This document shows positions 13,077 through 35,079 of a DNA stretch of 35,080 nucleotides, in pieces. Positions within the stretch are counted from its first letter, which is position 1, and each line of letters opens with the position of its first letter. Below the pieces are notes generated by a model, which was given only the letters and a program-made list of their open reading frames with translations, was not told where the DNA came from and did no database searches. The stretch comes from an uncultured Methanobrevibacter sp. (GTDB taxonomy: Archaea; Methanobacteriota; Methanobacteria; Methanobacteriales; Methanobacteriaceae), in NCBI GenBank assembly GCA_902771225.1, contig CACXWH010000013.1:1-35080 (forward strand), written 5' to 3'. The translations under genes were made by a program, and so were the position numbers.

Positions 13077-13156
13077 AAAAATTACTTATCAAATGCTCTT
13101 GGACAAGCCAAAATTATAATAATTAATATAATTATTAAATGCATAATATAGTAAAA

Positions 13157-30742: not shown

Positions 30743-31563
30743 AATCTAACAGCCACATTATTTTCTTTTAAGTATTCTTTTACTTCACCAATAGAATATT
30801 GATTAAAATGGAAAATACTTGCTGCAAGAGCTGCACTAACATCGGTTTTTTCAAAAACATCTAAAATATCCTTTGGCTCACCAACACCACCACTGGCAAT
30901 AACTGGAATATCAACAGCATCATTAATAGCCTGATTTAATTCTATATCATAACCTGCTTGTGTTCCATCACCATCCATACTAGTTAAGAGGATTTCACCC
31001 GCACCAAGATCTTGACACTTGCGAGCCCAAGCTATTGCATCCATACCTGTGAATTCACGTCCTCCATAGATGCTGCAGTCAAACCAGCAATATCCATTGT
31101 CAGTTTCAATAACAATTTTATCTTTAGCATCATCCGGATGGTCAACATATCTTCTTTTTGCATCAATTCCTATTACAACAGCTTGAGAACCAACAACTTT
31201 AGAAGCTTCTGTTAATAAATCAGGATTTTTAATAGCTGCAGTGTTAGTTGAGCATTTATCTGCTCCTGCTTTTAACATTTTGATATAATCATCAACTTTT
31301 CTTATTCCCCCACCTACACAAATGGGCATGAAAACATTTTCAGTTAATCTATCAATAACATCTGCCATGGTAGCTCGTCTTTCATGGGAAGCTGTAATAT
31401 CAAGTACAACAACTTCATCCGCCCCTTCTTCATAATAACGGGTTGCAAGTTCTACAGGATTGCCTGCATATTTGATTTCCTTAAATTCAACACCTTTAAC
31501 AACACGTCCTTCTGGAACTTGTAAATCACAATCTAGACAAGGAATAATTCTTTTAGTTAACAT
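30739..31563 (-). CDS. hisF: Imidazole glycerol phosphate synthase, cyclase subunit
   Basis: With HisH, makes imidazole glycerol phosphate and AICAR in histidine synthesis. It is a 274-aa beta/alpha barrel. [12 protein letters not shown] supplies the first catalytic aspartate (D11) and [10 protein letters not shown] the second (D134). Phosphate loops ICVGGGIRK and [10 protein letters not shown] are intact. It is about 20 aa longer than the bacterial form, with an insert after IDAKRR ([11 protein letters not shown]). I chose ATG 31563; the frame is open further upstream through a terminator, which is not credible as coding. hisH is not nearby. Confidence 0.94.
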
Positions 31564-31571
31564 AATATCAA

Positions 31572-31608
31572 TAGAAAAAAAGTAGTTATTGTTTTTAAAA
31601 AACAATAA
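31572..31608 (-). terminator. secG terminator before hisF
   Basis: Ten-bp stem TTATTGTTTT / AAAACAATAA (31586-31608), followed on the minus strand by CTACTTTTTTTC. It ends close to the hisF start, so hisF must rely on read-through or a promoter overlapping this region. Confidence 0.5.
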
Positions 31609-31610
31609 TA

Positions 31611-31772
31611 TTAAGCGGAATATCTTAAAACAAAACAAAATATTGCTAAAATGATAGTTAAAACTACAACATGCTCAGGAGAAAGTTTTGGTCCAACACT
31701 TTCTTCATCAAAGTACCTTACTAAACCTGCACCGGTTTGAGGCATACTCATCTTATTATCTTTTTTTGACAT
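31611..31772 (-). CDS. secG: Preprotein translocase Sec61-beta/SecG subunit
   Basis: A 53-aa protein, the smallest subunit of the archaeal SecYE-beta channel. Translation of the minus strand gives a polar N-terminus ([20 protein letters not shown]), the conserved [17 protein letters not shown] and a single membrane helix ([14 protein letters not shown]) ending near the C terminus, exactly the Sec61-beta plan. The ribosome site GGAGATATT stands directly before ATG 31772. A TATA-like element lies about 56 bases upstream. hisF follows after a terminator-like hairpin. Confidence 0.93.
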
Positions 31773-32057
31773 AATATCTCCTTCAATTAATTAATTAAAA
31801 TAATATGTGCTAATTATCTTTTTTATAGTATATAATATTATTGAAAATGAAAACATATTAGTTACTAAATGAATTTTAATTCATCAGATATATTGAATTT
31901 ACCTATTTATTGTATTATTGTAAACTCAAATTTTAAAAAATAATAATTAATTTCATAGAAAATTAGAAAAAATATCTATTGAACATACATCCTATATATA
32001 ACCTATTTATCATTGTTTCTACATAAATGATTAATAACTGTCATAGGAGTTGATAAT
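31773..32057. promoter_or_regulatory. Divergent intergenic region, secG / ABC transporter
   Basis: 285 AT-rich bases. AGTATATAAT (31828-31837) is a likely TATA for secG on the minus strand. TATATATAAC near 31991 is a candidate for the ABC operon. A 16-bp palindrome ATGAATTTTAATTCAT-like element (7-bp arms, TT spacer) stands at 31869-31884 and could be an operator. No ORF was seen. Confidence 0.4.
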
Positions 32058-33008
32058 ATTATATCAAAAAATAGAAAAATTATTCTAATAACTATGGTAA
32101 TAGCAGTTTTTTTACTAATTATTTTTACATTATATGGTATGACTGATGAAGATGCAGATACTGTTAAGATTGGATATTTACCTACAGATCATGACACAGC
32201 ATTATTTGTCGCAAATGCTACAGGAATGTATAAGGATGAGGGAATGAATGTGGAATTATATGAATATAATAATGGTGGAGATTTGATGAGCGCAATGGTC
32301 AGTGGTGATTTAGATGTTGGTTATGTTGGAATAACTCCAGTAATAAATTCTATGTCTAAAGGAGTACCTATAAAAATTGTTGCAGGAGTTCAAAATGAGG
32401 GAAGTGGTTTGCTTTCTCATAGTTCATCAATTAAGTCAATCACTGATTTAAAAGGCAAAACAGTAGCTACACCTGGTGAAGCATCAATACAAAATGTATT
32501 ACTAAAATATGAATTAAAGAAAAACGGACTAAGTACTTCTGATATTGAAAGTCCTAGTATGAAGGTTCCTTCAATGAATGATGCATTAAGAACTAAAAGT
32601 ATCGATGCAATGTTAACATATGAGCCTTATGTTACAATTTCAAAAGAAGTTAATAATGAGACTTTGGTGAAAAGCTCTGGAGATATTTTACCAGACCATC
32701 CATGTTGTGTTGTAGTGATGAATGAAAAATTTTTATCAGGACATTCTGACAAAGCACAAAAAATTTTAGATGTTCATAAAAAAGCAACAGAGAAAGTAAA
32801 AGAAAATCCTGAAGGAATGGTACAATATTTGCCGCCGCATATTGTTCCAAATTCTGAAATTGAAAAAGAAAGTTTAACACATATTAAGTGGATAAGCGAT
32901 TTAAATGATACTTATAAGAAAAATGTGAATAATTTCTTAAAGATTGAAGAGGATTTGGGAATAGTTAATGAAACAGTGCCTCAAGAAAAGTTATTTGCAG
33001 AAATTTAA
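32058..33008 (+). CDS. ABC transporter substrate-binding protein (NitT/TauT/SsuA family)
   Basis: Captures an anion such as a sulfonate, taurine, nitrate-like or riboflavin-precursor-like ligand outside the membrane. It is 316 aa as called. VKIGYLPTDHDTALFVANATGMYKDEGMNVELYEY, DVGYVGITPVINSMSKGVPIKIVAG and DLKGKTVATPGE are typical of the SsuA/TauA/NMT1 group. The N-terminal hydrophobic helix has no lipobox, so it is membrane-anchored or signal-cleaved. The first ATG is 32094, but GGAGTTGATAAT ends right before ATT 32058. That start adds ISKNRKIILIT, giving the positive N-region a signal sequence needs, so I take ATT as the probable start. Confidence 0.8.
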   Translation: MISKNRKIILITMVIAVFLLIIFTLYGMTDEDADTVKIGYLPTDHDTALFVANATGMYKDEGMNVELYEYNNGGDLMSAMVSGDLDVGYVGITPVINSMSKGVPIKIVAGVQNEGSGLLSHSSSIKSITDLKGKTVATPGEASIQNVLLKYELKKNGLSTSDIESPSMKVPSMNDALRTKSIDAMLTYEPYVTISKEVNNETLVKSSGDILPDHPCCVVVMNEKFLSGHSDKAQKILDVHKKATEKVKENPEGMVQYLPPHIVPNSEIEKESLTHIKWISDLNDTYKKNVNNFLKIEEDLGIVNETVPQEKLFAEI

Positions 33009-33042
33009 ATTTTTATCTAAAGTTTACAAAAAGGTTTTTAAT

Positions 33043-33795
33043 ATGAATAATTTCAGAGATGAATATAAAAAAGAGATGTTAATATTACCTATTATTTTAA
33101 TAATAATTTGGTATTTTATTTGTGATTATTTTCAACTAATTCCAGTTTACATGTTTCCTGGACCAACAGACGTTGCAACCTCCTTTGTCAAGTTAATTGT
33201 TTCAGGTAAACTTTTTAAAGATATATTTGAAACAATATATAAAGTATTGTTTGGTATGTTACTAGCATCAGTAGTAGGTATAACATTAGGTATACTATTA
33301 GGCTGGTTTAACCGTTTAGAAACATTATGTAAATTAATTATTAGTATTTTAAGACCTATTCCTCCAATTGCATGGATTCCTTTTTCAATAATATGGTTCG
33401 GTATTGGAGTAGGGCCAGCAGTATTCATAATTTTCATGGGATGTGTTTTCCCAATACTACTTTCAACAATTGATGGTGTACATAGAACAGATCCTGTTTT
33501 AATAGAAGCAGCAGAATCATTTGGAGCATCAAATTCACAGATGCTAACTGAAGTAATCATACCATCAAGTTTACCATATATTGTATCCGGACTTAAAATA
33601 GCAACCGGTATTGCTTTAATGTGTACAATTTCAGGTGAAATGATTGGATCTAGTTCCGGTATAGGATATATGATTTTAACATCAACAAACCTATTTGATA
33701 CAGGTTCAACAGTAGTTGGAATGTTAGTAATTGGTGTAATTGGTATAATTTTTGATTATATTTTTACAAAGATACAAGAAAGAATATTCTGGTAA
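33043..33795 (+). CDS. ABC transporter permease (SsuC/TauC-type)
   Basis: Membrane subunit of the importer, 250 aa with about 6 hydrophobic segments. The cytoplasmic coupling loop EAAESFGASNSQMLTEVIIPSSLPYIVSGLKIA contains the EAA motif. ILRPIPPIAWIPFSIIWFGIG is strongly typical of the NitT/TauT permeases. I chose ATG 33043 (MNNFRDEYKKEM), 34 bases after the binding-protein gene. An in-frame ATG at 32968 would overlap that gene with an atypical basic extension. The ribosome site GGTTTTTAAT is weak. Confidence 0.87.
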   Translation: MNNFRDEYKKEMLILPIILIIIWYFICDYFQLIPVYMFPGPTDVATSFVKLIVSGKLFKDIFETIYKVLFGMLLASVVGITLGILLGWFNRLETLCKLIISILRPIPPIAWIPFSIIWFGIGVGPAVFIIFMGCVFPILLSTIDGVHRTDPVLIEAAESFGASNSQMLTEVIIPSSLPYIVSGLKIATGIALMCTISGEMIGSSSGIGYMILTSTNLFDTGSTVVGMLVIGVIGIIFDYIFTKIQERIFW

Positions 33796-33804
33796 GGTGA
33801 TAAT

Positions 33805-34563
33805 ATGACATTTGAAATAGAAAATGTATCAAAAACTTTTGTATCAAACGATAGTGACGAAGAAGTACTTGCATTAAAGGATATTAACCTTACTATTGAA
33901 ACAGGAAAATTTATATCTTTAGTAGGTCCATCAGGTTGTGGAAAAACAACCTTGTTACGTATAATAGAAGGATTTGTAAAACCTACAGAAGGTACTGTTA
34001 AAGATGATGGAGAAATAGTAACGGGACCTTCAAACCAAAGAGGTTTTATATTCCAGAACTATTCTCTCTTCCCTTGGTTAAATGTCATTGATAATGTAAT
34101 ATTCGGATTAAATATCGGTGGAAAACCTGAAAAAGAAAGTAAGGAACGTGCAATGAAATATCTTGAGGATGTTGGACTAAAAGATTTTGCAGAAAGATAT
34201 CCTCATGAATTATCTGGAGGTATGAAACAAAGAGTTGCAATAATTCGATCATTAATTAATGATTCTAAAAGTTTATTGATGGATGAAACGTTTAGTGCAT
34301 TAGATGTGCAGACAAAACACAAACTACAAAAACAAATTCATGAAATTTGTAAAGAACAAAATAAGACAATCATCTTCGTTACACACGATATTGATGAAGC
34401 AGTATTTTTATCAGACGAAATTATCGTTCTTTCCAGAAGACCTGGGAGAATCAAGAAAATTTTTGAAATCAAACTAGAACACCCAAGAAATAGGGATAGT
34501 GAAGAATTTAAAGATTTGATATCTGAAATTACCCAAGAAATTGGTGAATTAGAAGACGAGTGA
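33805..34563 (+). CDS. ABC transporter ATP-binding protein (SsuB/TauB-type)
   Basis: ATPase that drives the importer, 252 aa. Walker A GPSGCGKTT (41-49), Q-loop FQNYSLFPW, signature LSGGMKQR (136-143), Walker B LLMDE (157-161), D-loop SALD and H-loop VTHDIDEA are complete. The residue after the catalytic glutamate is T162 where nearly all relatives have P (DEPFSALD). This is the only deviation I see. The ribosome site GGTGATAAT lies just before ATG, 9 bases after the permease. It is the third gene of the operon and converges on moaC. Confidence 0.9.
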   Translation: MTFEIENVSKTFVSNDSDEEVLALKDINLTIETGKFISLVGPSGCGKTTLLRIIEGFVKPTEGTVKDDGEIVTGPSNQRGFIFQNYSLFPWLNVIDNVIFGLNIGGKPEKESKERAMKYLEDVGLKDFAERYPHELSGGMKQRVAIIRSLINDSKSLLMDETFSALDVQTKHKLQKQIHEICKEQNKTIIFVTHDIDEAVFLSDEIIVLSRRPGRIKKIFEIKLEHPRNRDSEEFKDLISEITQEIGELEDE

Positions 34564-34857
34564 TTTCATCTTATGAGTCTGTTCATTGAGCTACCACGAG
34601 TTACAGTCAGATAATATTGGAGGATTATCCCCCGCACCCTCTTCAGAACCGAGCATATGACTTCCATCATACTCGGCTCAAGCAAGAATTTATCCAATAA
34701 TCTATTGTTAGGATATATCCTCCACAATATCCCATTTACATACTTTAAAAGTAAACATTTGATGAACGGACTCAAAATTTTTTTGAGCATAATCTAGTCC
34801 ATAATATCAAAATAATCCATAAAACAAATAATTGAGATTTTTAGGACACTACCAAAA
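34564..34857 (-). other. Intergenic region with group II intron remnant
   Basis: 294 bases between convergent genes. The minus strand carries a complete domain V at 34646-34679. Upstream of it in the intron direction are hairpins at 34700-34725 and 34771-34787 (CTCAAAA / TTTTGAG). Downstream (below 34646) is a G-rich run with a 5-bp stem GGGGG / CCTCC that could be part of a domain VI. No reverse transcriptase is encoded. A 74-codon minus-strand frame crosses the RNA element and is not a credible protein. Confidence 0.55.
34646..34679 (-). ncRNA. Group II intron domain V (relic)
   Basis: On the minus strand these 34 bases begin GAGCCGAGTATGATG and end ATATGCTCGGTTC. They can form every pair of the yeast ai5-gamma domain V: a 9-pair lower stem (including one G-T at position 3), a 2-nt bulge (AT at 24-25), a 5-pair upper stem and a GGAA tetraloop of the GNRA class. 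The catalytic triad AGC at positions 2-4 is intact. Several pairs differ from ai5-gamma on both sides, which is covariation. Confidence 0.78.
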
Positions 34858-35079
34858 TTAAATTTTTTCTTTTTTTAACACTTTGATTTCACTTATTCTT
34901 GTATCTGGATATTGGCCATATTCATCTTTTTCAACAGCTTTTACCATGTCCCAAATTGTTAAAAGACCAATACTAACTCCCGTGATAGCTTCCATTTCAA
35001 CACCAGTTTTGCCCAATGTGTTAACAGCACAGGTACATGTAATAAAAGTAGGATTTACATCAAAATCTACTTCAATACC
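34858..35079 (-). CDS. moaC: Cyclic pyranopterin monophosphate synthase MoaC (5' part outside the window)
   Basis: MoaC acts with MoaA in the first step of molybdopterin synthesis, forming cyclic pyranopterin monophosphate. Only the last 73 residues are in the window; the frame runs off the end. The conserved [31 protein letters not shown] and the tail [17 protein letters not shown] identify it. The gene is on the minus strand and converges with the ABC ATPase gene. Need for molybdopterin fits fdhD at the other end of the window. Confidence 0.93.

What the first reader, a model, noticed from the sequence alone, without database searches (positions are those of the whole stretch)
34646..34679. 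Perfect group II intron domain V without an intron-encoded protein
The minus strand folds as a canonical 34-nt domain V: AGC triad, 9-pair lower stem, 2-nt bulge, upper stem and GNRA loop. At least four pairs covary relative to yeast ai5-gamma (positions 7-28, 8-27, 10-23, 11-22), so resemblance by chance is very unlikely. Only 294 bases lie between the flanking genes, far too short for an intron with a reverse transcriptase. It is therefore a relic, an ORF-less or trans-acting fragment, or a domain kept for another use. Perfect pairing in an otherwise drifting AT-rich gap hints at recent insertion or selection.
Basis: partly seen in the sequence, partly recalled or inferred. Interest (0 to 1): 0.75.

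Follow-up and report, generated by a model that had tools for sequence, protein, structure and literature searches.

The report
Tail end of a dead intron
The hairpin is real: it is the last hundred or so bases of a group II intron, a self-splicing mobile RNA, left behind between two genes of a gut methanogen that still carries complete introns of the same family elsewhere, so it is almost certainly an ordinary broken copy.

Summary
Minus strand 34679-34646 is a canonical 34-nt group II intron domain V (14 of 14 pairs, AGC triad, 2-nt bulge, GNRA loop). Rfam RF00029 matches above its gathering score (46.2 bits). A model built from 25 related introns without this copy scores it 66.7 bits, E 4.8e-13, and extends the match through domain VI to a canonical 3' end (...UUAUCUGAC) at 34606. 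A short stretch of domain IV (to about 34703) precedes it. No other intron part was detected. The genome, a Methanobrevibacter by inference, carries six other domain V copies, two with intact reverse transcriptases and one with most of it deleted. Of 26 copies with at least 250 bases of upstream sequence, only this one has neither reverse transcriptase nor 5' intron sequence there. Best reading: a 5'-truncated, splicing-dead remnant. The covarying pairs show that its ancestor evolved as a functional intron; they are not evidence for a present function. Domain VI has a broken pair that the other 24 aligned copies keep. Truncated group II introns are commonplace (PMC4028801, passages). Interest is low; a kept function is not excluded but has no support.

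The parts
34646..34679 (-). group II intron domain V, canonical 34 nt
34606..34645 (-). 3-nt linker plus domain VI; bulged branch-point-like A at 34612; two non-standard pairs (lower stem G x A, and a C x A position that is unpaired in 7 of 25 aligned copies); intron 3' end AC at 34607-34606
   Evidence: (R1 alignment, positions to 77/77)
34680..34703 (-). 3' strand of domain IV, by similarity; the similarity to other introns stops here (boundary approximate, 34695-34703)
34704..34857 (-). about 154 bases between the moaC stop and the remnant; no similarity to intron or reverse transcriptase sequence above chance level was found; origin unknown
34564..34605 (-). 3' flank of the remnant up to the stop of the ABC ATPase gene; the part next to the gene (to about 34585) is shared with relative L051, which has no remnant there
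33805..34563 (+). neighbour: ABC transporter ATPase gene (last gene of an NMT1-like transporter cassette)
34858..35079 (-). neighbour: moaC (cut by the contig end)

Best explanation
A dead, 5'-truncated group II intron. An intron of the lineage now represented by C90 and C55 sat on the minus strand behind the ABC transporter gene. Everything upstream of the end of domain IV is gone, leaving domain IV's last strand, domain V and domain VI with a correct 3' splice end. Without domains I-III it cannot form the splice-site contacts or the active site on its own, so it does not splice or move. The loss was either incomplete copying during insertion (reverse transcription starts at the intron's 3' end; established knowledge) or a later deletion; the data do not separate these. 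Shown: identity of domains V and VI, the parts not found, and relatives with intact reverse transcriptases in the genome. Inferred: loss of activity, cause of truncation, neutrality.
For: RF00029 and genus-model matches, the latter through the 3' end. Seven domain V copies in the genome, two intact group II reverse transcriptases (both pass the TIGR04416 cut-off) and one ORF-deleted copy. Of 26 genus copies with at least 250 bases upstream, 25 have reverse transcriptase or 5' domain sequence there; only this one has neither (35 copies were compared, of 66 matches listed, and 9 had 61 bases or fewer upstream). Its domain VI shares the motif of the C90/C55 lineage (GAGGGTGCGG...), and its last 16 bases equal those of a decayed copy in a sister species, L160. 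Of 33 full-length matches to R1, 30 score 78.7-98.2 bits, the window copy 66.7, and two visibly decayed ones 37.5 and 36.1 (25 of the sequences built the model and so score high by construction). A group II intron pipeline paper states that a majority of bacterial copies are truncated (PMC4028801, passages).
Against: Domain V itself shows no broken pair, which is mildly unexpected for a long-dead copy. No intact parent with this domain V sequence was found: the nearest of 30 copies compared without gaps differs at 7 of 34 positions (four copies with an insertion were not compared), and apart from the window itself no match in 138 family genomes exceeds 84% identity (at most six candidates scored per genome). 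A paper on S. meliloti cites studies in which decay goes with loss of the 3' end, whereas here the 5' side is lost (PMC4496777, passages).
Confidence: 0.91

Rival explanations
1. Exapted RNA: the domain V-VI hairpins are kept as a structured 3' end or processing signal for the convergent moaC and ABC transporter transcripts.
For: It lies between convergent genes; 1 of 200 shuffles of the 100 nt folds as well, z -3.57; domain V has 14 of 14 pairs.
Against: Stable folding is inherited from the intron. In the other 66 genus genomes no match extended into the flanks, so conservation of the locus cannot be shown. The ABC gene of the relative L051 lacks the element.
Confidence: 0.05
2. Half of a split (trans-splicing) or circularly permuted group II intron whose 5' domains lie elsewhere.
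For: Domains V-VI stand without domains I-IV upstream, the arrangement reported for circularly permuted introns (PMC8637638, passages); trans-splicing fragments are known. A 5'-end-like sequence without a visible domain V sits at the end of contig C4.
Against: The region downstream on the minus strand runs into the ABC ATPase gene. The 5'-end pattern of C90-type introns has 0 matches in the window with up to 3 mismatches, and C90 5' domain sequence occurs only at introns with their own domain V. The C4 sequence is more simply the other side of the C17/C20/C31 copies, whose contigs break inside the intron. A 5' half of a very different lineage would be missed.
Confidence: 0.02
3. Assembly error: a complete intron is present in the cell and was cut short in the contig.
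For: Contigs C17, C20 and C31 break inside the intron, and the copies on C29, C55 and C90 lie within about 110 bases of a contig end; L050 ends inside domain VI.
Against: The 154 bases upstream are joined directly to the remnant and match nothing else in the genome search, and the remnant's sequence differs from the genome's other copies, so it is not a collapsed repeat. L050, a contig of another assembly, supports the 3' junction at 98.7% identity over 3121 bases; nothing independent supports the 5' junction.
Confidence: 0.02

Closest known systems
Group II intron C90/C55 lineage of the same genome (C90 reverse transcriptase matches TIGR04416)
   Same: Domain V fold, domain VI motif, 3' end of the form UAUCU(A/G)AC, domain IV 3' strand
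   Different: C90 keeps its 5' part and a 497-aa reverse transcriptase; C55 keeps the 5' domains; the window copy keeps neither, and its domain V differs at 14 of 34 positions from that of C90
Fragmented introns of Thermosynechococcus elongatus (TeI3g, m, n) and other truncated bacterial copies
   Same: Deletion-bearing fragments in a genome with intact and ORF-less relatives (PMC2882425, passages)
   Different: Different phylum and lineage; which domains those fragments keep was not read
Circularly permuted group II introns (PMC8637638, passages)
   Same: Domains V-VI without domains I-IV upstream
   Different: No domains I-IV found downstream here

Membership tests
Group II intron (as origin of the fragment) | domain V: 34-nt hairpin with AGC-type triad, 2-nt bulge, GNRA loop | tested here: met
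Group II intron (as origin of the fragment) | domain VI with bulged A 7-8 nt from an AY 3' end | tested here: met
   A at 34612, end AC at 34606; two non-standard pairs in domain VI
Complete group II intron | 5' end GUGYG and domains I-III upstream | tested here: not met
   no similarity to the C90 5' domain upstream; only 178 bases lie between moaC and domain V; C90-type 5'-end pattern absent from the window. Rfam was uninformative for domains I-IV: it returned only RF00029 on C90, C55 and C29 too
Complete group II intron | intron-encoded reverse transcriptase in domain IV (or ORF-less with domains I-IV) | tested here: not met
   no reverse transcriptase similarity in 399 bases upstream (best E 0.56, wrong strand)
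Active ribozyme | splicing or reverse splicing | not testable with these tools
   needs RNA work
Circularly permuted group II intron | domains I-IV downstream of domain VI | tested here: not met
   C90-type 5' domain absent from the window; a divergent lineage would be missed

The most novel reading that the evidence does not exclude
The orphan domain V-VI unit is transcribed and kept, either as a trans-acting catalytic domain that rescues the genome's degenerate introns or as a 3'-end RNA element for moaC.
Probability: 0.03. Interest if true: 0.6.

Novelty: new member of a known kind. Interest (0 to 1): 0.12.

Why it matters
On its own it matters little: it is one more truncated copy of a widespread retroelement. 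It does point to a larger, less described set of group II introns in Methanobrevibacter (domain V in 23 of 60 sampled species, this one included), with ORF-deleted copies, a tandem insertion and a recurrent motif at insertion sites.

Tried and rejected
Covariation as proof of present selection: rejected, because the pair types of the window copy also occur among the other introns of the genus, so the changes can predate truncation. Rfam absence of domains I-IV in the window as evidence: rejected as uninformative, since C90 and C55, which keep their 5' domains, also give only RF00029. Hidden reverse transcriptase or 5' domain remains upstream: lax tblastn and blastn gave only chance-level matches; the upstream stretch gave short weak matches elsewhere (best E 0.002, 33 bases, to a moaC locus of a relative), none within intron sequence. 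Searching viral contigs for the exact 34-mer: 0. A fold that pairs domain VI with sequence upstream of the remnant was seen and not pursued. The motif found beside C90 and C55 is not near the remnant; the window's only exact copy is at 13083-13102.

Full report
What is there. Read on the minus strand, 34679-34646 forms the textbook domain V: 9 lower pairs, a two-base bulge (A-U), 5 upper pairs, a GGAA loop and the AGC triad, all 14 pairs standard; a strict search for that structure found it once in the window and never in 40 simulated windows. Rfam's Intron_gpII model matches 34681-34611 at 46.2 bits, over its gathering score of 40. I aligned 25 other domain V-VI copies from the same genus, built a model from them without the window copy and searched the window: one match, 34681-34606, 66.7 bits, E 4.8e-13. 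That match runs through domain VI to the expected 3' end...UUAUCUGAC, with the bulged A (34612) seven bases from the end. On an alignment of the window copy with 24 others, 98.5% of cells are paired and 19 of 27 pairs are changed on both sides in at least one copy; slid controls pair at 40-51%. Folded alone, the segment's minimum-energy structure keeps the domain V hairpin in outline but does not show the canonical domain VI lower stem.

What is missing. Similarity to the other introns stops at about 34695-34703, in the last strand of domain IV. Upstream lie about 154 bases with no intron or reverse transcriptase similarity above chance level, and then moaC. I compared 35 copies (of 66 matches listed). 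Of these, 26 had at least 250 bases of upstream sequence; 25 of the 26 had reverse transcriptase or 5' intron sequence there, and the window copy had neither. The other 9, with 61 bases or fewer, cannot be judged. The pattern for the 5' end of C90-type introns is absent from the window. Rfam cannot be used to judge domains I-IV here, because it reports only RF00029 on C90, C55 and C29 too.

Where it comes from. The genome (2.36 Mb, 122 contigs) has seven domain V matches and two reverse transcriptase genes of group II type, on C90 and C29. C55 is a copy whose reverse transcriptase is deleted after about codon 45 but whose 5' domains are 88-89% identical to those of C90. C17, C20 and C31 break off inside a third lineage. 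The window copy's domain VI belongs with the C90/C55 lineage, and its final 16 bases equal those of L160, a decayed ORF-deleted copy in another species. Its domain V differs at 7 to 15 of 34 positions from the 30 copies that could be compared without gaps; four others were not compared.

Setting. In 28 of 29 relatives fetched, moaC is followed within 450 bases by a small Sec61-beta/SecG-like gene (naming recalled). In the window that gene is at 31772-31611, and the ABC transporter cassette plus the remnant lie between it and moaC. A contig of another assembly, L050, labelled Methanosphaera, matches window 31506-34626 at 98.7% and ends inside domain VI, so the cassette and the remnant's 3' junction exist in a second assembly. 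The ABC gene of the relative L051 has no remnant behind it.

How it works, or does not. Group II splicing needs domain I for recognition of the splice sites and for docking domain V (established knowledge). With domains I-III gone, this segment cannot splice alone. The paired differences between its domain V and those of its relatives show that its ancestor evolved as a working intron. They cannot show selection since truncation, because the same pair types occur in the other introns. Signs of decay are a broken domain VI pair that the other 24 aligned copies keep, a second unpaired position that is also unpaired in several others, a missing base in the domain VI loop, and a bulge A-U seen in none of the 34 other copies (31 have A-C and two U-C, counting by script; the script misread L145, which reads A-C by eye). 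The same A-U bulge occurs in the decayed small unit in L152 (by eye). The 100-nt segment folds strongly (z -3.57), as expected of such a fragment.

Literature. [quoted passage not shown] T. elongatus has 28 introns, 17 of them ORF-less and three fragments (PMC2882425, passages). A survey of 296 archaeal genomes found group II introns in 28, mainly Halobacterota, with most other phyla having none (PMC8919778, section 8). Searches for group II intron with Methanobrevibacter, Methanobacteri and rumen methanogen listed 3, 9 and 1 papers, none of which looked from its title to be about such introns (listings only). So the domain V matches in 23 of 60 species here may be under-described, but that lies outside this finding.

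Verdict. The explanation is ordinary: a 5'-truncated, inactive group II intron remnant in a genome with complete relatives.

Noticed in passing
window 13083-13102 (-) and 51 of 60 genus genomes: A short motif, CCRAGAGCATYTGAMAAGTA, found with up to 1 mismatch in 51 of 60 genomes, often several times, and 0 times when read backwards. Forms of it lie directly upstream of the 5' ends of introns C90, C55 and L160. It also stands empty, as at 13083-13102 just behind a gene end, and occurs in genomes without a domain V match such as G010 and G029. Of 8 further copies examined, 4 (L232, L235, L236, L239) start within about 6 bases past the end of an open frame on the other strand. Function unknown.
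   Followed up: partly
C55 (L015), L137, L152, L160: Introns in three species have lost most of the reverse transcriptase but keep 5' domain sequence and about the first 36-45 codons. G055 and G006 hold 5 and 6 domain V matches; how many are ORF-deleted was not counted. This resembles the trans-mobilised ORF-less introns of T. elongatus.
   Followed up: partly
L152 1498-1251 (-): Directly behind an intron's 3' end starts a second intron-like unit of only about 250 bases, with a 5' end, pieces of the 5' domain and a decayed domain V-VI (36.1 bits).
   Followed up: partly
60 Methanobrevibacter species: Domain V over the Rfam cut-off in 23 of 60 species, although a 2022 survey reports archaeal group II introns mainly in Halobacterota, with none in most other phyla.
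   Followed up: no
window 31800-34860: An NMT1-type ABC transporter cassette plus the remnant sits between moaC and the SecG-like gene, which are neighbours in 28 of 29 relatives fetched.
   Followed up: partly
L229 (contig C4, 98-114): A group II 5'-end-like sequence (GTGCGACGAG...) next to a form of the same motif, at a contig end with no domain V in view; possibly the 5' side of the C17/C20/C31 lineage.
   Followed up: no
L050: A 3122-base contig labelled Methanosphaera is 98.7% identical to the window over 3121 bases; it is either misbinned or a recent transfer.
   Followed up: no
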